Source: Sinomicrobium kalidii | Lineage (GTDB): Bacteria > Bacteroidota > Bacteroidia > Flavobacteriales > Flavobacteriaceae | Direction of reading: 5' to 3' | DNA: 64,000 nucleotides | NCBI RefSeq assembly: GCF_021183825.1 | Contig: NZ_CP089211.1 | Span: 2,728,001 to 2,792,000 of the forward strand | Shown: positions 29,187-41,830 of the stretch, piece after piece | Position numbering within the stretch: the stretch's first letter is position 1 | Layout of the letters: the number at the start of each line of letters is the position of its first letter | Notes under the pieces: generated by a model | Seen by the model: the letters and a program-made list of their open reading frames with translations, nothing else | What the model was told of the DNA's origin: nothing | The model's database searches: none | Made by a program: the position numbers and the translations under genes

Positions 29187-30836
29187 ATGCCTACACTACA
29201 CTGGATAGGAAAAGACAAGGTTATAAATCATCATCAAGATGTACCATATAAAATTCTTGAGAAAAGATACACATACTGCAATGGAATAGAAACCAAAAAC
29301 GCCACAAGTGACAACAAAATAATACACGGAGATAATCTTGAAGCCTTAAAAAGTCTATTGCCTGAGTATGAAGGTAAAATTAAGTGTATTTATATAGACC
29401 CTCCTTACAATACCGGGAATGAAGGTTGGGTATATAATGATAATGTAAGCCATCCCAAACTGAAAAAATGGTTAGGTGAAGTAGTAGGTAAAGAGGGAGA
29501 GGATTTAAGCAGGCATGATAAATGGCTATGTATGATATACCCTAGGCTTAAATTATTGCATAAACTATTAGCAGATGATGGTGTCATTTTCATAAGTATT
29601 GATGACAATGAATATCAACATCTAAAATTAATTTGTGATGAAATTTTTAGTAGAAAGAATTTCATTACAACCTTTACATGGAGGACAGATGGTAACTTTG
29701 ATAATCAGGCTAAAATTAAAATAAATCATGAGTATATTTTATGTTATAGCAAAAGAGCAGGGTATTTTGAATTTCCGGAACTAATTGATTTGAATGTTGA
29801 AGAGACAAGTAAATTATTCAATAATAAAATTATAAATACAATAGTTAAAAATGGCCCTAAAAATCCAATAAGTAAAATTAAATTACCTATTGGTTTTAAA
29901 ACGAATTTTAAAAGTGGGATCATAAAAAAAAGAGAAGATTCTTTTCCTTTTTTCCATAGTGATGCCATAGTAGATGATTATAAGCTACAAAATAATGTTA
30001 TTGTTGAAAGTGGATGGAGTTCTAAAAGAATTTTTGAACTCTTTTTGGCAAACAACTTAGAACCAGTAATAGATACCAAAGGACAATTGACTAAATTCTA
30101 TTTGACTGAGAATGGAGCGATAGAAAGTGAGAAAACTAGAGAAAAACAAAGTCATGTTATTAGTTCATTGATGAATATGGGAAGTACTCAAAATATGAGT
30201 AATGAACTTAAAACTATGGGGTTCTCTTTCTCATTTCCAAAACCAGTTACTTTAATAAAGTATCTAATCTCAGTATTTAATAGTAAAGATTTTTATATTC
30301 TTGATTCTTTTGCTGGATCTGGAACCACTGCACATGCTGTACTAAATCTTAATAAAGAAGACGGGGGTAACAGAAAATTCATCTTAGTAGAAATGGAAGA
30401 CTATGCCAATACCATTACTGCTGAAAGAATAAAAAGAGTAATAGATGGTTATGGTAAAGACAAAAAAAATGTAGAAGGTACAGGAGGAGATTTTGATTAC
30501 TATGAGTTAGGGGCTCCTCTATTTTTAAATAATGAACTTTTAAATGAAGAAGTAGGCATTGAAAGAATACAGGAATATGTATGGTATAGTGAAACCAGAA
30601 GTCCTTACGAACCTCAAGAAGAACATTATCTTTTAGGAGCCTATAACGGCACTGCTTACTATTTCTATTATGAAAGAGATAGGCTTACTACCCTTGATGA
30701 TAGTTTTTTAAGAGTCATAAAAACCAAAGCAGAACAATATATAATCTATGCAGATAATTGTTTGTTAGATGATAGGCTAATGGACAAGTATCACATTATC
30801 TTTAAGAAGATACCAAGAGATATAAGTAGATTTTAA
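29187..30836 (+). CDS. mod: Type III restriction-modification methyltransferase (Mod)
   Basis: 549 aa. The beta-class N6-adenine methyltransferase order is visible: catalytic DPPY at residues 71-74 (IDPPYNTGNEG) comes first, and the SAM-binding FAGSG at 375-379 (DSFAGSGTTAHAV) comes last, with a variable target-recognition region between. Mod both methylates its asymmetric site and provides specificity for Res. The res gene begins about 40 bp downstream on the same strand, so they form an operon. The recognition sequence cannot be inferred. Confidence 0.93.
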   Translation: MPTLHWIGKDKVINHHQDVPYKILEKRYTYCNGIETKNATSDNKIIHGDNLEALKSLLPEYEGKIKCIYIDPPYNTGNEGWVYNDNVSHPKLKKWLGEVVGKEGEDLSRHDKWLCMIYPRLKLLHKLLADDGVIFISIDDNEYQHLKLICDEIFSRKNFITTFTWRTDGNFDNQAKIKINHEYILCYSKRAGYFEFPELIDLNVEETSKLFNNKIINTIVKNGPKNPISKIKLPIGFKTNFKSGIIKKREDSFPFFHSDAIVDDYKLQNNVIVESGWSSKRIFELFLANNLEPVIDTKGQLTKFYLTENGAIESEKTREKQSHVISSLMNMGSTQNMSNELKTMGFSFSFPKPVTLIKYLISVFNSKDFYILDSFAGSGTTAHAVLNLNKEDGGNRKFILVEMEDYANTITAERIKRVIDGYGKDKKNVEGTGGDFDYYELGAPLFLNNELLNEEVGIERIQEYVWYSETRSPYEPQEEHYLLGAYNGTAYYFYYERDRLTTLDDSFLRVIKTKAEQYIIYADNCLLDDRLMDKYHIIFKKIPRDISRF

Positions 30837-30877
30837 AGAACAAACCAAGAATTGTTGTGCATGAAACAAATCAACCA

Positions 30878-33547
30878 ATGGAATTAAAACCATATCAAAA
30901 ACAAGTTATAAAGGATTTAGAAAGCTATTTAGAGAATCTACAAATCCATCAATCCCCAGCCAAAGCCTTCAATGCCTATTGGGAAGATAAAATTGGAGAA
31001 TATACCATCAATCTTGATGGCACTACTACAGGAATGAGACCTTATAAGGATAACATTCCTGGAGCCATACACGTAGCAGCTAAAGTTCCTACCGCTGGTG
31101 GAAAAACCTTTATAGCCTGTAATGCCCTACATACTATAAATAAATATTTTAATCAAGGAAACCCGAAAGCTGTGGTATGGTTAGTACCTTGGTCTAACCT
31201 CTTACAGCAAACAATTAAAAATCTTTCAGACTTGAGCCACCCATACAGAGAAAAGCTAAACAGTCTCTTCAATGGCAGGGTTGAAGTTTATGAAAAAGAG
31301 GATTTGCTCCAGGGGACTAATTTTAACCCAACCTCTGTAACAGAACAACTCAACATTTTTGTTTTCAATTTTAGCAGTCTAAGGATCAATTCCCAAAAAA
31401 AAGAGGATAGGAAAGTATTTCAAGAAAATGGAGCATTAGAACCTTTTAAAGATGTAATTATTAATGAAGATTTGATATTACCTCATACAGATGAAACTGC
31501 TTTAATTAATGTGATTAGGAGTTTAAATCCTGTGGTTATTGTTGATGAAAGCCACAACGCAGAAAGTGATTTAAGTGTAGAGATGCTTAATAACTTGAAT
31601 CCTTCCTTAGTTTTAGACCTTACTGCAACCCCAAAAGAGAATAGTAATATAATCAGTTTTGTAAATGCTATGGCTCTTAAAAAAGAGCACATGGTAAAAC
31701 TACCTGTAGTGGTTTATAATCACCACAGAAAAGAAGAAGTTATTAGTAGCGCTTTACAATTACAAAGACAACTGGAACTTCTAGCCAGAGAGGAAGAAAA
31801 AGAAACCGGCAGATATATTAGACCAATCATTTTGTTTCAAGCCCAATCCAATATAAAGGGTAAGAACAATACTACTTTTCAAAAGATAAAAGAGCAGTTA
31901 ATCAAACTTAAAATCCCAGAGGAACAAGTAAAAATCAAGGTTAGTGGAATAGATGAGCTTAAAGACATAGATCTTATGGCTAAAGATTGTCCTGTAAGGT
32001 ATATTATTACCATCAATGCCTTAAAGGAAGGTTGGGATTGTCCTAATGCCTATATCCTTGCATCCCTAGCAGATAAATCTTCTCCTGTGGAAGTAGAGCA
32101 GATTTTAGGAAGAGTGTTGAGGCAACCTTATGTTACTAAGCACAAAAATCAATTATTAAATCTATCTTTTGTTTTAACAGCTTCATCCAAGTTCAATGAA
32201 ACATTGGACAGCATTGTTAAGGGATTACAGGATTCCGGGTTTAGTAAAGAAGATTATTATGCAGAAGAACAACCGGAAGAGAAAAAAACTATTGATGAAG
32301 TGCTACAGGAAGAGTTATTTGGAACTGATGATGACACCATAAAGCCTGATGATGATTTTGATTTAGATGCTGTGGATTTTAATCCTTCAGATGAATTGAG
32401 TATAGAAGATATAAACCAACAAAATCCAATAATCAACCATATTACAGAAAAAGCTAAAGTTGAAGGTGATGCTTTTGAAGAAAAAGTGAAAGAAGTGGAT
32501 ATGGATGACGTTTCTAATTATTTATCTCAGGTTATGAACAAACAACCCAAAAAGTATGCTATTGATAGTCAGTTTAAGGATGTCGCAGGCAACATTAAGT
32601 TACCACAGTTCTTTAAAAAAGTAGATGAAAATGAATTGCATGATAATATCTTATTTGAAGAATTGGGAACCAATGAAACCTTCTTGAATAAAAATAGTTT
32701 ATTAGATGGTTTTTTATTGTCTAACCAGGACTCAAAAATAGATTTTGACGAAAGTTCAGCAGATATTTACAAAGTAGATTTTGATGAAAGCAAAAGGACT
32801 ACTGCTGTTAAAAAACTATCCCAAAGGGCAAAAAACATACTCCTTGACAATATCCTATCCAAACCAAAGGAAAGTCAGATTTCTGATGTGAGTAGTATGA
32901 TTGTGTCCAAATTGGGTGATATGACACCTATTTCTGAACAAGAGTTAAAAAAGTATGTGAGTAGGGTTTTTGACAACCTGAACACTGAACAAGTTAGGGA
33001 TATAGTGGATAATGATTTTATCTACATTAGAAAAATCAAAGATAAGATTAATAGCTTAACCCAGATTTATGCTAAAGAAAGATTTCAAATACTGCTGGAT
33101 GCTAATGAAATTATAGTTAAGGACAACTTCACTTTTTCTGATACTATCATGCCTCTTTACCCAAGTACTCCTATATCCAAATCACTCTATGAAAGAGAGG
33201 AAAAAATGAACAATTATGAACAGGATATGATACTAGAAATAGCTTCATTAGAAAATATTGAGTTCTGGCATAGGAACCTTGAAAGAGGAAAAGGCTTTTA
33301 TTTAAATGGCTTTAGCTCTAACCATTATCCTGATTTTATCCTCTATACCAAAAAAGGTAATATCATTTTATTAGAAACTAAAGGTGATGTATATGATAAT
33401 GATGATAGTAGGGATAAAAACAGGTTGGGTAAAATATGGGCACAGAAAGCTGGAGATAACTATAAATATTTTATGGTGTTTCAATCTAAGGATGTGCCTG
33501 ACACCTATACAGCTAAAAGTATAATAGAGGTGTTGAAGAAATTGTAG
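30878..33547 (+). CDS. res: Type III restriction endonuclease subunit (Res)
   Basis: 889 aa from the ATG at 30878; an upstream GTG at 30857 is possible. SF2 helicase motifs: Walker A in PTAGGKTFIA (about residues 71-80), DESHN box II near 230, and ALKEGWDCPNAY with EQILGRVLRQ motif VI near 390-410. An acidic linker follows. The C terminus carries the PD-(D/E)XK nuclease (YPDFILYTKK, then LLETKGD). Res cleaves unmodified DNA after ATP-dependent communication between two sites. The Abi_2 gene starts 6 bp downstream, suggesting one defence operon. Confidence 0.93.
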   Translation: MELKPYQKQVIKDLESYLENLQIHQSPAKAFNAYWEDKIGEYTINLDGTTTGMRPYKDNIPGAIHVAAKVPTAGGKTFIACNALHTINKYFNQGNPKAVVWLVPWSNLLQQTIKNLSDLSHPYREKLNSLFNGRVEVYEKEDLLQGTNFNPTSVTEQLNIFVFNFSSLRINSQKKEDRKVFQENGALEPFKDVIINEDLILPHTDETALINVIRSLNPVVIVDESHNAESDLSVEMLNNLNPSLVLDLTATPKENSNIISFVNAMALKKEHMVKLPVVVYNHHRKEEVISSALQLQRQLELLAREEEKETGRYIRPIILFQAQSNIKGKNNTTFQKIKEQLIKLKIPEEQVKIKVSGIDELKDIDLMAKDCPVRYIITINALKEGWDCPNAYILASLADKSSPVEVEQILGRVLRQPYVTKHKNQLLNLSFVLTASSKFNETLDSIVKGLQDSGFSKEDYYAEEQPEEKKTIDEVLQEELFGTDDDTIKPDDDFDLDAVDFNPSDELSIEDINQQNPIINHITEKAKVEGDAFEEKVKEVDMDDVSNYLSQVMNKQPKKYAIDSQFKDVAGNIKLPQFFKKVDENELHDNILFEELGTNETFLNKNSLLDGFLLSNQDSKIDFDESSADIYKVDFDESKRTTAVKKLSQRAKNILLDNILSKPKESQISDVSSMIVSKLGDMTPISEQELKKYVSRVFDNLNTEQVRDIVDNDFIYIRKIKDKINSLTQIYAKERFQILLDANEIIVKDNFTFSDTIMPLYPSTPISKSLYEREEKMNNYEQDMILEIASLENIEFWHRNLERGKGFYLNGFSSNHYPDFILYTKKGNIILLETKGDVYDNDDSRDKNRLGKIWAQKAGDNYKYFMVFQSKDVPDTYTAKSIIEVLKKL

Positions 33548-33553
33548 AGCAGT

Positions 33554-34426
33554 ATGGGGAATATAGCAACAAATACTATTCAACAACTTGAAAAGCTGAA
33601 TTCAAGAGGTATGGATGTTGATTACTCGGATGAAAAAGTCAAGGAGATTTTATTAGACATTGGATACTATAGATTGGGGTTTTATTGGAATCCCTTTGAA
33701 ATCAATGGTAATTATCAATTTAGAGAGGGAACAAAATTATCTGATGTGGTAAAGCTGTATTATTTGGATGTTGACTTAAGAAACTTACTTATCAAATATA
33801 TCAATAGAATTGAAATTAATTTTAGAACCAAACTTGTGTATTATGTATCGAATAAACATAAATATTCCCCCACTTGGTTTATTCACCCTGATATAATGTT
33901 CAATTCGTTTATATCATCATTTGATCAACACTATTCTGATGAGTTCAAAAGAAATAATAAACCAATTAAATTGCATCATAACAAGTATATAAATGATAAA
34001 TATGCGCCAGCATGGAAGACATTAGAATTTTTTACTTTTGGTGTGGTTCTTAAGATATTCAAGTCGTTGAAAGATAATGATATACAAGAAAGGATTTCTA
34101 AATGTTATGAAATAAGAAACCTTAAAAAATTTATTAATCTTTTTGAAACAATTGTTTACATTAGAAATGTATGTTCTCATGGTGGAGTTTTATTTGATTT
34201 AAATACACCAAAGGGAATATCTATTTTACCTGGTATTAATTTTAATGACAATAATAGGCACTCACTAGACTCTACTATCAAAATTATTCTGTTCATTTTA
34301 GGAAAGATTTCAGAAAGTAGGAAAACAGAACTTGAAACAAGGATAAAGGAACTATTTGAAAGCCATAAAGATAATGAGGTACTTAAATCAATTATAGAAA
34401 ATAAAATTGGATATGAATTTGAATAA
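33554..34426 (+). CDS. Abi_2/AbiF-type HEPN abortive-infection protein
   Basis: 290 aa. The N terminus has the Abi_2 signature (LNSRGMDVDYSDEKV, then LDIGYYRLGFYWNPF). The middle region is LYYLDVDLRNLL with NRIEINFRTK, and TLEFFTFG follows. The C terminus carries a HEPN ribonuclease motif R-X4-H (RNVCSH, Arg204 to His209). AbiD/AbiF proteins cause growth arrest during phage infection. To my knowledge their HEPN fold is related to that of Cas13, and some are held in check by an adjacent non-coding RNA. The gene starts 6 bp after res and is followed at once by a complete small-RNA gene, which makes a toxin-antitoxin reading plausible. Confidence 0.88.
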   Translation: MGNIATNTIQQLEKLNSRGMDVDYSDEKVKEILLDIGYYRLGFYWNPFEINGNYQFREGTKLSDVVKLYYLDVDLRNLLIKYINRIEINFRTKLVYYVSNKHKYSPTWFIHPDIMFNSFISSFDQHYSDEFKRNNKPIKLHHNKYINDKYAPAWKTLEFFTFGVVLKIFKSLKDNDIQERISKCYEIRNLKKFINLFETIVYIRNVCSHGGVLFDLNTPKGISILPGINFNDNNRHSLDSTIKIILFILGKISESRKTELETRIKELFESHKDNEVLKSIIENKIGYEFE

Positions 34427-34434
34427 AGGCAGAT

Positions 34435-34467
34435 ACTTGCATATATGCAAGTAATTATGTATCTTTG
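34435..34467 (+). promoter_or_regulatory. Promoter with palindromic operator for small RNA
   Basis: TTG (34437-34439), 20 bp, then TATCTTTG (34460-34467) is a near-consensus Bacteroidota promoter (TTG-N19-TAnnTTTG). The -33 element sits inside a perfect palindrome, ACTTGCAT-AT-ATGCAAGT (34435-34452). It begins 8 bp after the Abi_2 stop codon. Confidence 0.75.
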
Positions 34468-34472
34468 TATGC

Positions 34473-34556
34473 TCTAAAGTGCCCTATTATTCAAGCAATA
34501 ATACTGCACTATAAAAGAATAATATAAACCCAGACTTGCTCTGGGTTTTTCATTTT
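34473..34556 (+). ncRNA. Predicted small structured RNA next to Abi_2/AbiF gene
   Basis: An RNA of about 84 nt is predicted from just after the TATCTTTG box to the T tract. Hairpin 1: AGTGC (34478-34482) pairs GCACT (34506-34510), then a 3x3 internal loop, then ATTATT (34486-34491) pairs AATAAT (34497-34502), with loop CAAGC. An AU-rich single-stranded stretch leads to the terminator hairpin with loop CTTGC. The two loops are complementary over four bases (CAAG with CTTG) and could kiss. No reading frame fits. Its position directly behind an AbiF-type gene suggests an RNA antitoxin or guide-like partner. The start is approximate. Confidence 0.7.
34527..34556 (+). terminator. Terminator of small RNA
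   Basis: A perfect 8-bp stem AACCCAGA / TCTGGGTT with a 5-nt loop is followed by TTTCATTTT. It is a strong intrinsic terminator and also closes the R-M/Abi_2 operon. From 34557 to 34762 I see no supported feature. Confidence 0.85.
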
Positions 34557-34762: not shown

Positions 34763-35215
34763 CTAATATCGTTTTGACTTTATTACTGGATTTAATTCCC
34801 TCTCAAGAAAAATCTCTAAAGCAGCAACCCAATGATAATGATCTGGGTTCAGAACATTGAATAATAGAACTTTTGAGTTTGGAGTGTCAGGTAAATATTT
34901 CATTTCAAAGGTTTCATTTCTGGTATTAGCATGAATATGCTCCAACGCTCTTTTTCTACTATTTGTAAGATGTCTGCCTACTTTAATAATTTTATTTGAC
35001 ACAATAAAAACATAAACGCCTGGATGATAGATAAACTCCTTTGTTGAACTTGACAAATCGGCTACATTCTCTTCTATAATCACAAATTTGTCCGAGACAC
35101 ATTGAAATTCTTGTTCAAATATTCTTTTTACTTGTAAAATCATGTTGCAGGTTGGAATGAAAACTGTATAGTTAATATTCTTTACAACTTTCTGAAAGGG
35201 GTAAATTGTCCTCAT
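34763..35215 (-). CDS. GIY-YIG nuclease-like protein
   Basis: 150 aa. The C-terminal two thirds fit a GIY-YIG domain: GVYVFIVSNKIIKVGRH supplies the GVY and KVG motif pair, SRKRALEHI the conserved Arg/His helix, and ALEIFLERELNP the metal-binding Glu. The first 55 residues are unique. GIY-YIG enzymes make single- or double-strand DNA cuts. The gene is last in a five-gene minus-strand operon and overlaps the preceding DUF2971 gene by 4 bp, so translational coupling is likely. A nuclease effector is inferred. Confidence 0.72.
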   Translation of the reverse strand: MRTIYPFQKVVKNINYTVFIPTCNMILQVKRIFEQEFQCVSDKFVIIEENVADLSSSTKEFIYHPGVYVFIVSNKIIKVGRHLTNSRKRALEHIHANTRNETFEMKYLPDTPNSKVLLFNVLNPDHYHWVAALEIFLERELNPVIKSKRY

Positions 35216-36267
35216 ATATCTTGAAATACAAACTCATTTATATTAATATTCCATTTTTTATCAGCTAAATTAGCTGTTGCCCAAGTTACCCCTTGATTTT
35301 TTTGTTTTTTCTGATAAATTTGAATTAGGACTCTCTCTGCTTTAAAAAAAAGATTTTCATGTAAATATTTTGACAATTCCAATATCTGCTTTTTAGGAAT
35401 AGTCATATCCAGTTTTATTACAACATCCCCTCTTTTTATTATCTCATAATAATCTCTTTCTATTAATTCTATATTTACCGTTTTCGTTTTATCTCTATCT
35501 GAAAATGTATATTGTTTCATGAATGAAACCTCTGAATTACTAACATCTTCTATCAATTTTCGATTAAATCGATAGCTATTCCTTTGTTGAGTTAGTTGGT
35601 AGTATTTAATCTGTCTACCTTTTAGGCGATTAACCATTTCATCTTTCAATGTATCCGGCATTCTTACCCCAAAATAGATAGATTTCAATGCGCTTGGATG
35701 GTAAAAGAATTCTCCAAAAAAATCTGTTATTATCCTATACTCCTCCTCATAACTCCATCTCTTTGATTTAAAGCCAAGTAGTTTTTGTATTAGTTTTTCA
35801 CTTTTTATGCTAGCTATGTCTTTTAGAAGGTCTACTTCCGGAGGAGTGTTAGAATATTTAATGGGAAAAGAATAGGTTTTATTCTTCTTATATCCATTCT
35901 TTAAGAGATTCAGGTCATATTCAATACAAAATCCTTTATGAGAATTACTATAGTGAGCCCAAAGAAGTTCATCATCATATCTTTTGGATAATGAAAAAAC
36001 CCCTATCTTTTCTTTAAGAGAGATAAAACCATTGAGGGCTTTTTCAACCGGCACAAAATTTTCTTTAAATTTTTCTCCAAAAAGCCATTGAAGAGAATCT
36101 CTTTGTTTTTCAAATTTGTCTAAGGTTAATAATGCCTCACAAGGGTCATTGAGTGTTTTTAAATTAGCACCCCAGAAAAAATTTTTTTCAAGGGCAAATA
36201 AATCCCTCCTGAATGTTTCCTCGCTTCCTGCTCTATATTTGTATACCAACATTTTATTCGTTAACAT
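35212..36267 (-). CDS. DUF2971 family protein
   Basis: 351 aa. The DUF2971 hallmark is clear: VFSLSKRYDDELLWAHYSNS followed by HKGFCIEYDL, then a conserved KSKRWSYEEEYRI block near residue 170 and IYFGVRMPD. DUF2971 proteins have no settled biochemical role and recur in phage-defence neighbourhoods. The C-terminal 120 residues (after about 230) go beyond the usual domain and may carry a second module. It starts 20 bp after the caspase-like gene. Confidence 0.75.
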   Translation of the reverse strand: MLTNKMLVYKYRAGSEETFRRDLFALEKNFFWGANLKTLNDPCEALLTLDKFEKQRDSLQWLFGEKFKENFVPVEKALNGFISLKEKIGVFSLSKRYDDELLWAHYSNSHKGFCIEYDLNLLKNGYKKNKTYSFPIKYSNTPPEVDLLKDIASIKSEKLIQKLLGFKSKRWSYEEEYRIITDFFGEFFYHPSALKSIYFGVRMPDTLKDEMVNRLKGRQIKYYQLTQQRNSYRFNRKLIEDVSNSEVSFMKQYTFSDRDKTKTVNIELIERDYYEIIKRGDVVIKLDMTIPKKQILELSKYLHENLFFKAERVLIQIYQKKQKNQGVTWATANLADKKWNININEFVFQDI

Positions 36268-36287
36268 TGATTCCTGATTTTTTCTTC

Positions 36288-36905
36288 CTACTCGTCATAA
36301 TCACTAAATGCTTCATCAACTTCCTCTGCAATTAACTCACAATGTTTTAAATAGGCAGGATCAGCTTCAGCGTCAAGTCTATCATAACAAACAAGCCTAA
36401 TATCAATAGCATCTCGTACTTTATCCGCTGCAACCACTGGGTCAAGTTTTCTAACTTCTACATGAAAAAGAAAAAGATTGAAAGCGATAATCAAATCCAA
36501 TGGGGTTATATTATTTCTTGGGCCACATACAAACTCAATTTGTTCGCAACAATTAAACATTTTCCATGCAACTTGATTAAGTCCTCCTCGACAACATGAA
36601 TGTAAAAAAATTGAATTAGCCTTATAACATTCACTTGCACAAATCATTGCTGCAAATTGAATCCAAGTTATATTAAGTGTTCCTGAGATATTTCCAAAAT
36701 TGGTGTCGCACCCGTGAGTAGCAAGGTAGATATAATCATATTTAGATCCATTATGCAATGCCTTTGTTAAATCATTTTTAGTTTTTACATCATATTGGTC
36801 ACTCTTGATCCCATACAATTCTATTTGACTGGTTATATTTTTCACTTCGGCTTGTTCAATATCTTCGCTTGCGACCAAAACCAATAACGTTTTCATATCT
36901 ATCAT
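36288..36905 (-). CDS. Caspase/CHAT-like cysteine protease-fold protein
   Basis: 205 aa. Two blocks match the caspase-hemoglobinase/CHAT catalytic dyad: YDYIYLATHGCDTNFG (His-Gly, about residue 80) and NSIFLHSCCRGG (Cys-Arg-Gly, about residue 115). A Rossmann-like strand-helix start (TLLVLVASEDIEQAEVKNI) precedes them. In defence systems such proteases are triggered to cleave host or partner proteins. It overlaps the PD-(D/E)XK gene by ATGA (36902-36905), which indicates tight coupling. The protease call rests on motif pattern only; which of the adjacent Cys residues is catalytic is unclear. Confidence 0.62.
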   Translation of the reverse strand: MIDMKTLLVLVASEDIEQAEVKNITSQIELYGIKSDQYDVKTKNDLTKALHNGSKYDYIYLATHGCDTNFGNISGTLNITWIQFAAMICASECYKANSIFLHSCCRGGLNQVAWKMFNCCEQIEFVCGPRNNITPLDLIIAFNLFLFHVEVRKLDPVVAADKVRDAIDIRLVCYDRLDAEADPAYLKHCELIAEEVDEAFSDYDE

Positions 36906-37825
36906 GAATTTTGTTTAGATATAAGTGTTTTAATTATCAAACCTCTTAATTCCTCAACTTTTTTCAACCCCTTTTCCACCTGTATAAGCTGTGCTTTAAA
37001 TTCTTTTTTACTTTCTATTTTATCCGTAAAGGCACGTATAGCAATATTATTCTTATATTTTATCAATTCTACCCATTTGGGTAGTTTACCCTTAATATTG
37101 TTGTCAAAATCAACTGGGAACCCCTTAAATTCAGCATCAATATAGCCTTTCCTCAATTTATGGTAAAACACAATACCATTTAAGTTATCATCATACAGTG
37201 CTGGCCAATCACTATTCTGTGGTACTATTTTAGGTTCTTTCATCTTTAGGCTGGGATAATGTTTTTCCTTATAACTCCAGTAAGAATACCAAAACTTTTG
37301 TACAGGTTCACTATTAACAGGTTGATACCTCCTTCTTAATTTTTCGATAGCTATTTTTAACAACGTACTCTTAAATCTATTTCTTAACGTATCAACAGAA
37401 TTAAACCGATTTCTAATTGTTTCATACGTTACAAATAGTTCAAAGTCATTTTGATTATTACAATAGGATTGAGGGGCAATTAAAATGCAATATGCTTCGT
37501 CACAATATCTTTGGATAACATATTTTTCCCCTCTTTCTCTATACCTATCTGACTGGCTTTTCTGGAAAGAAGCATCTAACTTATTCTCAATCAAGACATA
37601 TATTTTTTTATTGAGAATAGAAGTATAGGAAAATATAATATCCGTTTCTCCCAAACCAAAATCTGAAATGCTTTTCCACGCCCCATTTGAAGTAAGTAAT
37701 GCGGGTAGGCTTAATTCCTGGATAAGCCATTCACAAAAAGTATTGTCAGAGGATAACTCTTCTAACAAAATCAAATCAATGTCTCTTTCCTGAACCGTTT
37801 CTACTGGTATTAGTTTATCATCCAT
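36902..37825 (-). CDS. PD-(D/E)XK nuclease superfamily protein
   Basis: 307 aa. The N-terminal 120 residues show the nuclease core: GLGETDIIFSY (catalytic Asp) and KKIYVLIENKLDASFQKSQS (E-x-K plus the following Gln helix), as in the PDDEXK_4 group. The C-terminal half (LRKGYIDAEFKGFPVDFDN) looks like a small beta-rich domain. Such proteins bind or cut DNA. It is second in the operon, 59 bp after the abiH-like gene, and overlaps the caspase-like gene. Confidence 0.78.
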   Translation of the reverse strand: MDDKLIPVETVQERDIDLILLEELSSDNTFCEWLIQELSLPALLTSNGAWKSISDFGLGETDIIFSYTSILNKKIYVLIENKLDASFQKSQSDRYRERGEKYVIQRYCDEAYCILIAPQSYCNNQNDFELFVTYETIRNRFNSVDTLRNRFKSTLLKIAIEKLRRRYQPVNSEPVQKFWYSYWSYKEKHYPSLKMKEPKIVPQNSDWPALYDDNLNGIVFYHKLRKGYIDAEFKGFPVDFDNNIKGKLPKWVELIKYKNNIAIRAFTDKIESKKEFKAQLIQVEKGLKKVEELRGLIIKTLISKQNS

Positions 37826-37884
37826 GATTTAATAAAACTAAACAATTTATTCAAAAAAGTTTGTTTTTTGGGTATAGTAGTCGC

Positions 37885-39165
37885 CTACACTGGAAACCTA
37901 ACGAGGCTTAATTCTGACATTGAAGAACAATGCTTTTCGGGTACAATTTTTTCTCGCATCATATTTTTATTGTCAAAGTGTCGTGATATTTCTTGAGTTT
38001 TAGTAGTATAATCATTGAACTTTTGTCCATCCTCATCCTCCCATTCATAATAGAATATTTGTATTGATTTACAATTTTTATGCTCAAAAATTCTTTTTAA
38101 CATTACCCTGTCTGAAAGTCCACAGGAATGCCCCACGATAAAGACCTGATACCCCTCTGACTGTTCAATAAATCTTAATAACCTGTAATAGTTATCTGTC
38201 TTAAAATATCCGAATGATTTTATATGCCTAAGAAGTTCATTATCATTCAGTTTTTCCATTACATCATAATGATCGTCGGTTTCATCTCCATAGCCAAAGA
38301 TTATAGGGTTTTGGTCTAAGTTCTTTATATCTCCATGTATGAAGTTGTAATCGACATGAACCTCTCGGTTTTCAAATGAATTTGAATGATTACCATATTT
38401 ATAAATAGTATCTGTGTAATTAAAATTCAAAATCTGAATATTTTGGGGATAATGATCTTCTTCTTTTAATTCCAACTTTTCTATTTCTCGTTCAATGAAT
38501 TTTCCTTTAAATCCATTCCAGAAATGCCCCTGAGCCACATTGTTAACAGTGTGAGGAATGTCTGTCACTTCATGCAAATATTCAACAAACCTGTTTCTTA
38601 GGAAATCTAATTCAGAGTTAAGGAATTTTACATTGTCTTTAACATCTTCATTGTACATTTTGTTACCTTTTTTGTCTCTAACATTGATGATTTCAAGTAA
38701 TGAGTCATAATACATTCCTTCAATGTCTACCCAATTATAATTCCTTCCCCCCTCCTTCATGATATTGTAAGTCTTCTTTATTATCGTTTCCGGATACTTA
38801 ACCCGTTTTTTCCTGGGCATTACATCGTAATCAATAAAAGTTCCCTCTTTAAGATTGTCAGGAAAAGAAAATTCTACCCCAAAACTCCTTTCAAGGTCAG
38901 TTAGTCCTTTAACATCTGTAATACTCTCCAATTTCCTCCTAAAACCATTATCTCCACTAACGCCCTGTGAAACTTTGGTCTCAATTAAAAAGAGCCCTTC
39001 TTTTGTTTTCGTAGTGTTATATTTAAATCCATCTCTTTTTTTTTCTCCAACACTAAGAGCTTTTCTGATTTCCTTTTTTAATAAATCAATTATAAAATCC
39101 TGATATTTAGTTTTGAGACCATGAGCTAAATCAAAGCCATTTCCAAGAAGTATAAGTCTATTCAT
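37885..39165 (-). CDS. AbiH-family abortive-infection protein
   Basis: 426 aa from the ATG at 39165; the upstream in-frame ATG at 39195 adds ten residues not typical of the family. The AbiH signature opens the protein: MNRLILLGNGFDLAHGLKTK. Further blocks are ILNFNYTDTIYKYG (about residue 250), HGDIKNLDQNPIIFGYGDE and YQVFIVGHSCGLSDRVML. AbiH proteins have a Rossmann/SIR2-like nucleotide-binding look and give abortive infection; the mechanism is unknown. It is first in an operon with nuclease- and protease-like genes, unlike the usual single-gene abiH. Confidence 0.88.
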   Translation of the reverse strand: MNRLILLGNGFDLAHGLKTKYQDFIIDLLKKEIRKALSVGEKKRDGFKYNTTKTKEGLFLIETKVSQGVSGDNGFRRKLESITDVKGLTDLERSFGVEFSFPDNLKEGTFIDYDVMPRKKRVKYPETIIKKTYNIMKEGGRNYNWVDIEGMYYDSLLEIINVRDKKGNKMYNEDVKDNVKFLNSELDFLRNRFVEYLHEVTDIPHTVNNVAQGHFWNGFKGKFIEREIEKLELKEEDHYPQNIQILNFNYTDTIYKYGNHSNSFENREVHVDYNFIHGDIKNLDQNPIIFGYGDETDDHYDVMEKLNDNELLRHIKSFGYFKTDNYYRLLRFIEQSEGYQVFIVGHSCGLSDRVMLKRIFEHKNCKSIQIFYYEWEDEDGQKFNDYTTKTQEISRHFDNKNMMREKIVPEKHCSSMSELSLVRFPV

Positions 39166-39221
39166 TTCGGTGTTACTTAGGTTGTCGATGTACAAGATAC
39201 AGAATTATGGCATTATGTATT

Positions 39222-39237
39222 TTACGGCTTTCCGTAA
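39222..39237. promoter_or_regulatory. Dyad between divergent defence operons
   Basis: TTACGG-N4-CCGTAA is a perfect inverted repeat between abiH (leftward) and the gene at 39292 (rightward). It directly precedes the rightward -7 box, so a bound regulator could control both directions. Confidence 0.45.
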
Positions 39238-39239
39238 TT

Positions 39240-39247
39240 TATTTTTG
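39240..39247 (+). promoter_or_regulatory. Rightward promoter -7 box
   Basis: TATTTTTG fits TAnnTTTG, 45 bp before the ATG at 39292. The -33 region is occupied by the dyad rather than a TTG. Confidence 0.45.
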
Positions 39248-39291
39248 CTGTAATCATTAAATTTGATACTTATCACTAAAATAAATTCAAA

Positions 39292-39555
39292 ATGACCAAT
39301 AAGGAATTACTAAAGGAATTATCTCCACTTATCAAAAATGACAGGGAATCTGCTAAGCTATTTTATGACTTAGTTAGAAATAATTATCAAATAGATACTG
39401 CGAAGGGTAATGTTTCCCGTAGCTATTTTGAAAGAGAACTTGAGTTGTTGAAGGTTATAATTCAAATAGCAGATAAAGACTTATTCTATCAAAAATATGT
39501 TGCAAATGCTTCTTATATATACAAACTACTTCAGGAAAATGGGGTGGATAAATAA
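39292..39555 (+). CDS. Hypothetical protein (87 aa)
   Basis: Small, charged and predicted all-helical (KELLKELSPLIKNDRESAKL, then RSYFERELELLKVIIQIADK). No export signal or known motif. It is first in a rightward set with the 194-aa protein and the HExxH gene, and divergent from abiH. Its size and composition suit a regulator or antitoxin, but that is only a guess. Confidence 0.6.
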   Translation: MTNKELLKELSPLIKNDRESAKLFYDLVRNNYQIDTAKGNVSRSYFERELELLKVIIQIADKDLFYQKYVANASYIYKLLQENGVDK

Positions 39556-39611
39556 ATCATTTTCTATCTACATCTTATTATAAGTTGGCTAAATGAAACT
39601 TAGAACACAAA

Positions 39612-40196
39612 ATGAAATACCCTATATTACTACCTGATTACTTGTCTGATTTTTCAGAATTCATTGCATTTTGGAGTAAGCAATATTATTATCCAACCAA
39701 CATTTCTTATTATTCAGAGAACATCCACAAAAAAGAATACACAGAAGAAGATATTACAGATCTATATACATGGAAAAACGGGATGAAACTGAGTGTAAAG
39801 AAGGAAAAATCTCTGCAAGAAAAAATTCTTGCAAAATTGGAGATATTAAATGTCTATAAAAAAGAGAAGGAATTGCCTTTAAATGCTTTTTTAAGTGAAT
39901 TTAAAGGAGTGAGTTTTGTCTGGAAAATTTTCTTGCTACATATCCTAAAACCGGATCAATACCCTATTTATGACCAGCATATACATAGGGCGTTTAAGTA
40001 TCTCCATCCTGAAAATGGGAACTTACAAAAAGTCAGTAAGAATGAATTTTATTTCGATCATTATCTACTATTTATCAAACAACAAGGAGTAAAAGACTTG
40101 AAAAAATTAGATGAAGCATTTTTCGCCTTTGGCCAATTCTTGAACACCAAGAAATATAGAACTTTATTGAACACGCGAACAAATGTAAATTTTTAA
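39612..40196 (+). CDS. Hypothetical protein, possible HhH-GPD-like fold (194 aa)
   Basis: I do not recognise a named family with certainty. The block VWKIFLLHILKPDQYPIYDQ followed by HIHRAF resembles the Asp-containing segment of HhH-GPD DNA glycosylase-like proteins seen in Bacteroidota islands (position about 108-134). No iron-sulfur Cys cluster is visible. The protein is cytosolic, lysine- and tyrosine-rich. Its stop is 2 bp from the HExxH gene start, so the two are translationally linked. Confidence 0.6.
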   Translation: MKYPILLPDYLSDFSEFIAFWSKQYYYPTNISYYSENIHKKEYTEEDITDLYTWKNGMKLSVKKEKSLQEKILAKLEILNVYKKEKELPLNAFLSEFKGVSFVWKIFLLHILKPDQYPIYDQHIHRAFKYLHPENGNLQKVSKNEFYFDHYLLFIKQQGVKDLKKLDEAFFAFGQFLNTKKYRTLLNTRTNVNF

Positions 40197-40673
40197 TAAT
40201 GAGTGTTTTGAATGATATAAAACGGATTGTTTGGCATGAGTTTGGCCATTTATGTGTTAATAGCATAATGGTTAAGAGTGTTAAAGATATTGATTTAAAC
40301 ATAGCAAGGCTTACTATTCATTACTTAAATATGGTAGATGGGGCTAAATGGGGTGGATGTGTACAAGTTTTACCAGACCCAGGATATGAAAGGGCAGTTA
40401 AAAATTTGAATTATTTTAGTTTAAAGTCGATCTCCTTATTCTCGGGATGTTTATTTGAGACTCTTTACTTAAATGTAATACAAGGTCTTGATAAAGGGAT
40501 TTTTGACTGCTTTTGTAATAAATCAAATTGTACAGGGATAGGAGACTTCTATACCTATAATTCTTTAATTTCTGAATTATTGAAGCAAAAGGATAGAGAA
40601 GGGGGAAGTAAAGTTGTAAGGCTCCCTAAAAAACAAAGCGTTCTTAATTAGAAAAACGTTTAAATTTAGGGTA

Positions 40674-40940
40674 ATGAAAAAAACACGACACACCGAAACA
40701 CAGATCATCAAGATCTTAAAGTCTCAGGAAGCCGGACAGTCTGTTACAGACCTCTGCCGGGAGCATGGCATCAGCCAGGCTACTTTTTATAACTGGAAGA
40801 GTAAATTTGGAGGTATGGACGCCAGCCAACTCAAGAAAATGAAAGAGATGGAGGCAGAACTGTCTCAATTCAAGCGGATGTATGCCGATCTTGCTTTAGA
40901 AAACAATGCATTAAAAAACCTGATCGAAAAAAAGCTCTAA
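40674..40940 (+). CDS. IS3-family transposase OrfA
   Basis: 88 aa. The N-terminal helix-turn-helix (HTETQIIKILKSQEAGQSVT, then CREHGISQATFYNWKSKFGG) binds the IS ends. A C-terminal leucine/methionine coiled coil (LKKMKEMEAELSQFKRMYAD) mediates multimerisation. The stop lies 4 bases past the slippery heptamer at 40928, so part of the translation passes into orfB. Confidence 0.93.
   Translation: MKKTRHTETQIIKILKSQEAGQSVTDLCREHGISQATFYNWKSKFGGMDASQLKKMKEMEAELSQFKRMYADLALENNALKNLIEKKL
40928..40934 (+). other. Programmed -1 frameshift site
   Basis: AAAAAAG in the A-AAA-AAG register of orfA is the standard IS3-family slippery heptamer. A -1 shift here enters the orfB frame, which is open from this point to 41830, and produces the OrfAB transposase. 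Confidence 0.8.
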
Positions 40941-41830
40941 GGCCTGTCGATAAACGAGCAGCAGTTGGATATTTAGTCAAAGAGGAACACTTAAGTATCC
41001 GGCGGGCCTGTACAGCACTCAACCTAAGCCTATCGGTTTACTATTATCGTTTTAGATCCAAGACAGAAGATCGACAAATCATAGATGAATTAGAGAAATT
41101 GGCTGAGGCTTATCCTACTTATGGTTTTAAAAAGATGTTTTACTTGTTACGGGCCAAAGGATATCTGTGGAACCATAAGCGGGTTTATAGGGTTTATGTA
41201 ATGATGCGCCTCAACATTCGGCGAAAACGCAAGAGAAGGCTCCCTGCCCGTGTCAAAGTACCTCATATCATACCTGTGAACTGTAATATTACCTGGAGTA
41301 TGGATTTTATGCAGGATACCTTGATAAGTGGGAAGAGTTTTAGAACATTTAATGTGATTGACGACCATAACAGGGAAGCTCTTATGATAGGGATTGACAC
41401 TTCTTTGAGTGCCCGACGTATTGTACGGGATCTGGATAAACTCATTCAGTGGAGAGGTGCCCCTCAAGTGGTAAGGGTGGATAATGGCCCTGAGTTTACT
41501 TCAGCTGTATTTGACTCCTGGGCGCGTAAGCATAAGATCAAGATATGTTTCATACAACCAGGAAAGCCTACTCAGAACTCTTTGATAGAACGGTTTAACG
41601 GCTCTTATAGAAAAGAGGTTTTAGATGCGCATTTGTTTTTTGAATTAAACCATGTCAGAGACCAAACACAAACATGGTTATGGAATTACAATAATGTTAG
41701 GCCACACAAATCCTTGGGATATAAAACACCAGTAGATTTTATAGTACAACGAAGCAAAACGCGGTTTGCTTCCCTTATAATCGACCAACACTTAAGGGAA
41801 AATACTATATTTGAAAGTGCTTCTGTTTAG
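40934..41830 (+). CDS. IS3-family transposase OrfB (DDE integrase domain)
   Basis: The frame is open from the frameshift site; a TTG at 41099 would give a 243-aa stand-alone form. The DDE catalytic residues are visible: Asp in TWSMDFMQDTL, Asp in VRVDNGPEFTS and Glu in PTQNSLIERFNGSYRKEVLD. The HTH_21-like region upstream of the first Asp contains YPTYGFKKMFYLL. The spacing and the PGKPTQNS block point to the IS407 subgroup. Confidence 0.93.
   Translation, partial: ALRPVDKRAAVGYLVKEEHLSIRRACTALNLSLSVYYYRFRSKTEDRQIIDELEKLAEAYPTYGFKKMFYLLRAKGYLWNHKRVYRVYVMMRLNIRRKRKRRLPARVKVPHIIPVNCNITWSMDFMQDTLISGKSFRTFNVIDDHNREALMIGIDTSLSARRIVRDLDKLIQWRGAPQVVRVDNGPEFTSAVFDSWARKHKIKICFIQPGKPTQNSLIERFNGSYRKEVLDAHLFFELNHVRDQTQTWLWNYNNVRPHKSLGYKTPVDFIVQRSKTRFASLIIDQHLRENTIFESASV

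What the first reader, a model, noticed from the sequence alone, without database searches (positions are those of the whole stretch)
33554..34556. AbiF-type HEPN protein followed by a complete small-RNA gene: candidate RNA-controlled toxin
Seen: the Abi_2/AbiF gene carries R-X4-H (RNVCSH). Eight bases after its stop a near-consensus promoter begins (TTG-N20-TATCTTTG), followed by an RNA of about 84 nt with a two-part hairpin (AGTGC/GCACT, ATTATT/AATAAT) and a strong terminator (AACCCAGA/TCTGGGTT). The hairpin loop CAAGC and the terminator loop CTTGC can pair over four bases. Known, to my recollection: AbiF-type genes can be linked to a conserved non-coding RNA, and their HEPN domain is related to Cas13. 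Inference: the RNA restrains or guides the HEPN RNase, making an RNA-protein defence module behind a type III R-M system.
Basis: partly seen in the sequence, partly recalled or inferred. Interest (0 to 1): 0.9.

Follow-up and report, generated by a model that had tools for sequence, protein, structure and literature searches.

The report
AbiF toxin RNA and phage mimics
A bacterial self-poisoning antiviral protein is followed by a small RNA gene that most likely keeps it switched off, and some viruses carry look-alikes of such RNAs without the protein, probably to disarm the defence.

Summary
In detail: an Abi_2/AbiF HEPN gene (33554-34426) is followed by a promoter, a two-part hairpin and a terminator (34437-34550). 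The RNA is conserved: a covariance model finds it downstream in 78 of 80 related Bacteroidota loci (the other two end at the contig edge), with compensatory changes and a TAnnTTTG box in 74 of those 78. It is not Rfam abiF (RF03085). Sampled Bacteroidota AbiF form two clades: the window's (RNA mostly downstream, 'class A') and one related to PbAbiF and RF03085 (RNA upstream, 'class B'). By homology to proven AbiF-RNA pairs it is most likely a type III-like RNA antitoxin. Loop kissing and a conserved type III R-M link are not supported. Unexpectedly, both RNA classes occur alone in viral contigs: class A in 24, class B in 115 (80 fetched); Abi_2 is in 0 of 104 records searched, many of them fragments. 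The phage copies covary, mostly lack the promoter box, and lie behind the head gene, near lysis genes or beside tRNA genes; some phages carry both classes. I read them as decoy antitoxins against AbiF. Function and hosts are untested; ten named isolates lack them.

The parts
33554..34426 (+). abiF gene: Abi_2/AbiF HEPN protein, 290 aa, R204-X4-H209 (class A clade)
   Evidence: Pfam PF07751 4.4e-42; PADLOC AbiD 9.6e-46; PDB 8vz6 2e-16; alignment A2
34437..34467 (+). Bacteroidota-type promoter TTG-N20-TATCTTTG of the small RNA
   Evidence: sequence; TAnnTTTG within 60 nt upstream in 74 of 78 R1-defined copies, against 4.3% of random 60-nt stretches of the same loci; the consensus itself is recalled
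34474..34550 (+). class A AbiF-associated small RNA (start inferred from the promoter, end from the terminator)
   Evidence: R1 hit L001:2425-2467 = window 34478-34520, 55.3 bits (the window is one of the model's rows); found downstream in 78 of 80 relatives
34478..34510 (+). conserved hairpin: outer stem AGTGC/GCACT, CC/CT internal loop, 7-bp upper stem, CA..GC loop
   Evidence: fold, covariation
34511..34520 (+). conserved A-rich tail (nUAAAA type) after the hairpin
   Evidence: alignments A1 and A3
34526..34550 (+). intrinsic terminator with CTTGC loop
   Evidence: sequence, fold
29187..30836 (+). neighbour: type III DNA methyltransferase (Mod); context, not a conserved part
   Evidence: PADLOC MTase_III 9.4e-175
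30857..33547 (+). neighbour: type III restriction enzyme (Res), ends 6 nt before abiF; context, not a conserved part
   Evidence: Pfam ResIII 1.7e-16; linkage test

Best explanation
The pair is an AbiF-type RNA-controlled toxin. The HEPN protein is a likely RNase toxin held inactive by the short hairpin RNA that is transcribed from its own promoter just downstream and that binds the protein directly, as in type III toxin-antitoxin systems; loss of the RNA during phage infection would free the toxin and abort the infection. Shown here: the RNA gene, its structure, its linkage to one AbiF clade and its promoter box. Inferred from proven relatives: toxicity, binding, neutralisation, defence. Phages carry stand-alone copies of the same RNA class and of the upstream class; these are most simply decoy antitoxins that keep AbiF switched off (inferred).
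For: R1 finds the RNA in 78 of 80 class A loci at E<=1 (76 at E<0.01), both misses lying at contig ends; 39 of the 78 RNAs are identical to rows that built R1 and 39 are not; a pattern that needs no model, but does need TTTG or TTCG upstream, found 77 of 80. Covariation: 105 both-side cells against 48.7 shuffled and 8-37 slid. Promoter box in 74 of 78 copies against 4.3% of random stretches. Specificity: of 14 R1 hits with E<1e-4 in 397 genomes, 9 lie beside class A abiF and 5 do not. RNA class tracks the protein tree: 6 label changes against 31.1 shuffled, split 100/100 (caveats in the full report). Relatives: 8vz6, described as the PbAbiF-RNA complex (passages); AbiFCd toxicity neutralised by RNA binding (PMC12373285). 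Phage copies: 24 contigs for class A (reversed pattern 0), 115 for class B (no control scan); Abi_2 in 0 of 24, 0 of 40 and 0 of 40 records.
Against: No experiment or transcript data for this class. RF03085 is not matched. The solved relative belongs to the other clade (8vz6 to class B L040 1.9e-57 against 2e-16 for the window), and the proven C. difficile RNA lies upstream, so downstream control may differ. R1 does not detect an RNA at L011, L141, L143 or L146 (L146 only by pattern; L011 and L141 only by eye). Against decoys: ten named phages lack the RNAs, and many viral records are fragments, so absence of Abi_2 is not proof.
Confidence: 0.82

Rival explanations
1. The RNA is only a cis element of the abiF operon, such as a 3' processing or stability hairpin and terminator, with no antitoxin role.
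For: It lies directly behind the gene and ends in a terminator.
Against: A promoter box in 74 of 78 copies, a covarying hairpin with conserved loop and tail, upstream position in some viral abiF loci (L144, L145, L149; L148 by eye), and stand-alone copies in phages.
Confidence: 0.08
2. The RNA guides AbiF to nucleic-acid targets, as crRNA guides Cas13.
For: AbiF is reported to be ancestral to Cas13 (PMC12737573 passages).
Against: No spacer-like variable segment: what varies is the covarying stem and the length of a short loop. A review passage says AbiF lacks RNA-targeting specificity (PMC12948488).
Confidence: 0.03
3. The phage copies are not decoys but useful to the phage for another reason, such as late-mRNA stability or processing; AbiF RNAs may even have been borrowed from phages.
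For: They sit in noncoding gaps behind the head gene or beside tRNA genes, next to other structured RNAs.
Against: They keep the loop and tail of the bacterial RNAs and not just stems (partly by construction, since the search patterns fix some of these letters); both AbiF RNA classes occur together in some phages; presence is patchy among near-identical head genes. None of this shows the direction of transfer.
Confidence: 0.2
4. The phage copies are bacterial DNA wrongly binned as viral, or remnants of lost abiF genes.
For: A degenerate-looking bacterial copy exists (L162). 1 of 24 class A and 10 of 80 class B viral copies keep a TTTG box.
Against: Many lie between a major head gene and the next structural gene. 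Stems covary.
Confidence: 0.07

Closest known systems
AbiFCd-RCd22 of C. difficile phi027/phiC2 (RF03085; PMC12373285)
   Same: Abi_2/AbiF protein paired with a short hairpin RNA that has its own promoter and terminator; RNA antitoxin shown there
   Different: RNA upstream, two RF03085 motifs with a 1/6-nt asymmetric internal loop; here RNA downstream, symmetric CC/CT loop, CA..GC apical loop, not matched by RF03085
PbAbiF-AbiFr, PDB 8vz6 (described in PMC12737573 passages)
   Same: Abi family HEPN protein with RNA antitoxin; sequence match over window residues 13-214
   Different: matches a class B (upstream-RNA) protein far better (1.9e-57); the window's clade is separate
Pseudo-ToxI of phage PhiTE (PMC3475682, abstract)
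   Same: phage noncoding RNA mimicking a type III antitoxin to evade abortive infection
   Different: ToxN not AbiF; escape mutants expanded the repeats; here two AbiF RNA classes stand alone in environmental viral contigs, function untested
abiF sRNA in cyanophage S-CREM1 (PMC9964418, passages)
   Same: an AbiF-type RNA in a phage genome
   Different: RF03085 type in a Synechococcus phage; the passages I read give no decoy interpretation

Membership tests
Abi_2/AbiF HEPN family (PF07751) | profile match above gathering score | tested here: met
   144.9 bits against 25.6
Abi_2/AbiF HEPN family (PF07751) | R-X4-6-H HEPN motif conserved | tested here: met
   R204 and H209 invariant in 11 aligned proteins; the motif's meaning is recalled
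Rfam abiF RNA (RF03085) | covariance-model score at or above 37 bits | tested here: not met
   no RF03085 match at E<=10; positive controls phiC2 37.6 bits, L049 53.9 and L059 57.4 bits
Type III toxin-antitoxin system | RNA gene stably linked to the toxin gene | tested here: met
   78 of 80 loci
Type III toxin-antitoxin system | toxin inhibits growth | not testable with these tools
   shown for AbiFCd in PMC12373285
Type III toxin-antitoxin system | RNA binds and neutralises the toxin directly | not testable with these tools
   shown for RCd22 (PMC12373285) and described for AbiFr (PMC12737573 passages)
Cas13-like RNA-guided nuclease | variable guide segment | tested here: not met
   no spacer-like segment in the aligned RNAs
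Phage RNA antitoxin mimic (PhiTE type) | antitoxin-like RNA in a phage without the toxin gene | tested here: inconclusive
   R1 in 24 of 24 and Abi_2 in 0 of 24 records; R2 in 80 of 80 fetched class B loci, which the pattern had selected, and Abi_2 in 0 of 80 records; many records are fragments
Phage RNA antitoxin mimic (PhiTE type) | mimic protects the phage from the system | not testable with these tools
   no experiment

The most novel reading that the evidence does not exclude
Phages, probably of Bacteroidota and including a group with Crassvirales-related head proteins, carry exchangeable cassettes of stand-alone AbiF antitoxin mimics of at least two distinct classes behind the major head gene, near lysis genes and beside tRNA genes. 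They supply antitoxin late in infection so that AbiF toxins stay switched off: a widespread, RNA-only counter-defence matched to a diversified family of RNA-controlled toxins.
Probability: 0.65. Interest if true: 0.9.

Novelty: new variant of a known kind. Interest (0 to 1): 0.75.

Why it matters
It adds a second RNA class, absent from Rfam, to AbiF, the family reported to be ancestral to Cas13, with a protein-RNA clade match that makes co-evolution testable. If the phage copies work as decoys, they reveal an RNA-only counter-defence that protein-based anti-defence searches cannot see, and the mixture of RNA classes in one phage would hint at which AbiF types that phage meets.

Tried and rejected
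Rfam membership of the window RNA (rejected). Hairpin-terminator kissing: 14 of 91 copies have a CAAGC loop; of 67 perfect-stem terminators 29 have a CTTG loop; of the 6 CAAGC copies with such a terminator 2 (L001, L068) have CTTG, so there is no association. The CTTG loops are nonetheless unexplained: 0 of 35 other terminators in the flanks of L061-L140 had one, by a stricter terminator definition. Type III R-M linkage: Res homolog within 300 nt upstream in 2 of 80, anywhere in 13 of 80 loci (73 of the 80 have at least 1500 nt upstream). My first promoter count (87 of 91) was biased, because the pattern that found those copies asks for TTTG or TTCG upstream and some loci are in twice; I recounted on R1-defined copies (74 of 78). 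Named phage isolates: R1 and R2 on 10 whole records (7 Crassvirales, 3 Flavobacterium phages) gave nothing convincing (best R1 E=0.077); their gaps behind the head gene are 17-133 nt; short-query BLAST of one copy of each class found no convincing hit. Two first viral patterns returned nothing because I had set the spacing or terminator too strictly; the corrected pattern gave 24. A further gap RNA (ACTTAGT..AAGCCTCT..) does not match RF03085. I first called the main phage group crAss-like from memory. The test is indirect: its head protein and that of L208 share phrog_11589, and L208 matches head proteins of named Crassvirales at about 22-32% and of Flavobacterium phages at 27.7%, but the group's own head protein has only one hit, 25.8%, among named phages. 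Literature searches: of which I saw listings and opened six papers. Structure prediction was not run.

Full report
The locus. The gene at 33554-34426 encodes a 290-aa Abi_2 protein (PF07751, 4.4e-42; PADLOC AbiD 9.6e-46). Its only match among solved structures by sequence is 8vz6, 'Abi family protein' (2e-16), which passages of the review PMC12737573 describe as the PbAbiF-RNA complex. R204-X4-H209 is present and invariant in 11 aligned proteins. The genome is a 5.36-Mb single contig. A genome given as the same genus (G297) holds its abiF on a 12,684-base contig, the length of the Sinomicrobium oceani contig of L085, so the window is probably a Sinomicrobium (inference). The genome has one other, weaker Abi_2 match, without an R1 hit (L032).

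The RNA is conserved. Among 397 genomes drawn from the window's family, 37 have an AbiF match at E<=1e-10. The 11 best loci (L001-L011) have this RNA behind the gene, L011 only by eye (R1 finds the other ten). A scan of named genomes with 11 proteins matched 295 stretches, of which the best 80 loci were kept; their record titles point to Bacteroidota, from several classes. A pattern found the RNA downstream in 77 of 80 (it asks for TTTG or TTCG upstream; in L113 and L117 the RNA lies beyond a frame break). A covariance model R1 (39 rows) finds it in 78 of 80 at E<=1 and in 76 at E<0.01; the two misses (L097, L140) have 87 and 0 nt of DNA from the stop on. 39 of the 78 are identical to rows of the model and 39 are not. 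Consensus: AGTGC - CC - 7-bp stem - CA..GC loop - stem - CT - GCACT - nUAAAA. In 78 distinct rows all 7 upper-stem pairs show changes on both sides: 105 both-side cells in all against 48.7 in shuffles and 8-37 when slid. That alignment was fitted to the model, which favours it, and its 84 rows include three viral copies, a second copy in L083 and one probably spurious minus-strand row. TAnnTTTG lies within 60 nt upstream in 74 of 78 R1-defined copies, against 4.3% of random stretches of the same loci.

It is not the known abiF RNA. RF03085 gives no match in the window stretch at E<=10 nor in L001-L016 at E<=5, but scores phiC2 (37.6 bits) and upstream RNAs of other Bacteroidota AbiF genes (L059 57.4, L049 53.9 bits). 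Most other AbiF loci I fetched have a different upstream RNA ('class B', ACGCT-ACCC..AGAAC-AGCGT-CCCAG within a variable stem). A class B model R2 (13 rows from those loci) hits 36 of 42 non-class-A loci at E<=0.1 and 0 of 16 class A loci; R1 hits none of the 42. A tree of 77 AbiF rows splits into a class A side (36 rows) and a class B/RF03085 side (41 rows) at 100/100, with 6 label changes against 31.1 shuffled. Caveats: L011, L141, L142 and L146 were labelled without an R1 hit, and the program warns of long branches. PbAbiF sides with class B (L040 1.9e-57). In four viral class A loci the RNA lies upstream of abiF (L144, L145, L149 by R1; L148 by eye), so position can change.

How it works. 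In C. difficile the AbiF protein is toxic and the hairpin RNA RCd22 neutralises it by direct binding, in cis and in trans (PMC12373285: abstract, sections 6, 7, 11 and passages). By homology the window's RNA is most likely the antitoxin of its AbiF. Regulation should differ: in C. difficile the RNA is the leader of abiF and its terminator limits read-through, whereas here the RNA has its own promoter after the gene. A guide role has no support. Kissing of the two loops is not conserved (2 of 67 copies with a perfect-stem terminator have both motifs). The type III R-M genes upstream are context: only 2 of 80 relatives have a Res homolog within 300 nt.

RNAs without the protein. R1 over the 397 family genomes gave 14 hits at E<1e-4: 9 beside class A abiF and 5 not (G030, G047, G252, G016 twice, with stricter filters; 32 further genomes have only weaker hits, of which G202 is a class A locus). 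tblastn finds no class A AbiF in the fetched surroundings (L181-L185). The copy in L162 (G016) looks degenerate. G252's copy has an altered but paired outer stem (CTTGT/GCAAG) and lies in a prophage-like region (phage tail-completion relative). An exact pattern then found class A RNAs in 24 viral contigs; the same pattern reversed found none. The pattern fixes the outer stem, not the upper one. R1 scores them 39-61 bits, with one strong copy per record, and Abi_2 is in 0 of 24 whole records, many of which are short fragments. Only 1 of 24 has the TTTG box.

Where they sit. In the eight loci of the largest group that I printed (L188, L189, L191, L194, L197, L204, L205, L207) the RNA lies 65-172 nt behind a 517-520-aa head protein (cut short in L189) and before the next structural gene or an inserted small gene (L191's is phrog_11589 'major head protein'). 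Others lie within about 2 kb of an endolysin gene (L193, L199, L201). R1 hits 11 of 80. R2, built from bacterial RNAs only, hits 28 of the 76 searched, 7 of them at E<1e-4 and the others between 1e-4 and 0.016, plus L288 of the remaining four. All of these class B hits start within about 20 nt of the end of the head gene. Of 79 readable gaps, 37 hold A or B, and 2 (L210, L246) hold both. Outside this set L197, L202, L204 and L205 also hold both, and L189 does so with a weaker class B hit. The gaps are mosaics: most shown have a pyrimidine-rich hairpin, all 79 fit a loose pattern for a further stem RNA, and other RNAs and tRNA-Met genes vary. Presence and absence between near-identical head genes looks like cassette gain and loss (inference).

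Class B is commoner. An exact class B pattern, which fixes the inner stem but not the outer one, matched 115 viral contigs; 80 were fetched (I ran no reversed control for it), with 57 distinct RNA stretches. R2 scores all 80, as expected from the pattern, and R1 none at E<=0.01. Abi_2 is in 0 of 40 and 0 of 40 records. The outer stem, left free by the pattern, covaries strongly: over the whole structure 102 both-side cells against 21.9 shuffled and 9-21 slid, 98.0% paired; in the head-gene group 46 against 13.2. 31 of 80 lie within 200 nt of a tRNA gene, all 31 on the same strand, against 5.3 expected at random positions. Such an RNA could be freed from a long transcript by tRNA processing (inference). 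Ten of the 80 keep a TTTG box. L322, L338 and L361 have two class B hits.

Reading. A phage that shuts down the host would let a labile RNA antitoxin fade and free AbiF; a phage that makes its own antitoxin late avoids that (inference). PhiTE's pseudo-ToxI is the proven precedent for another type III toxin (PMC3475682 abstract), and an RF03085 RNA has been noted in cyanophage S-CREM1 (PMC9964418 passages). My searches of the held papers listed no report of the class A RNA or of such arrays; subscription papers, including the primary AbiF-Cas13 paper, were not available to me. Against the reading: no expression data; hosts are not assigned (Bacteroidota is inferred from the matching RNAs and related head proteins); ten named isolates lack the RNAs; 42 of 79 gaps hold neither class; and another use in late transcripts is not excluded.

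Noticed in passing
L210-L289, gap behind the head gene (e.g. L210 from 4058): Besides AbiF-type RNAs most gaps shown have a long hairpin with a pyrimidine loop that often holds CACCUCCU (like the 16S rRNA 3' end, recalled), and all 79 fit a loose pattern for a further stem RNA (GAGTG..CACTC, changed to GATAG..CTATC in L204).
   Followed up: partly
L210, L211, L221, L226, L233, L242, L271 gaps: A variable RNA ACTTAGT-AAGCCTCTT..-ACTAAGT (13 of 79 gaps) resembles the 5' half of RF03085 but is not matched by it; L260 has a sub-threshold RF03085 match (30.9 bits).
   Followed up: partly
34526-34548 and relatives: The terminator loop CTTG recurs in 29 of 67 perfect-stem terminators of class A RNAs but in 0 of 35 other terminators of the flanks, found by a stricter definition; reason unknown.
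   Followed up: partly
L012-L025 and relatives: Several class B abiF genes follow a frame ending like HsdS (LLQQMFV) and precede a frame that looks like HsdR, suggesting a place in type I R-M operons; read by eye, not tested.
   Followed up: no
L163/L185 (G047): A stand-alone class A RNA with promoter box and terminator sits behind a frame that looks like a restriction-modification protein and a 71-aa frame, with no class A AbiF found nearby.
   Followed up: partly
window 34763-40651: Defence-island-like neighbourhood: PDC-S31/DUF2971 protein, PD-(D/E)XK-like protein, AbiH (Pfam 1.9e-25), then frames that look like an IS3-type transposase at 40674-41830 (by eye).
   Followed up: no
L135 about 4780 and 6000: Similar stretches containing GGGCACCCAGAATGT flank this abiF locus on both sides, as if it were an inserted cassette.
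   Followed up: no
L036; L083 4805-4837: Extra class A RNA copies: two pattern matches downstream of abiF in L036 (one R1 hit at 2626-2671) and a copy without promoter box or tail upstream of abiF in L083.
   Followed up: partly
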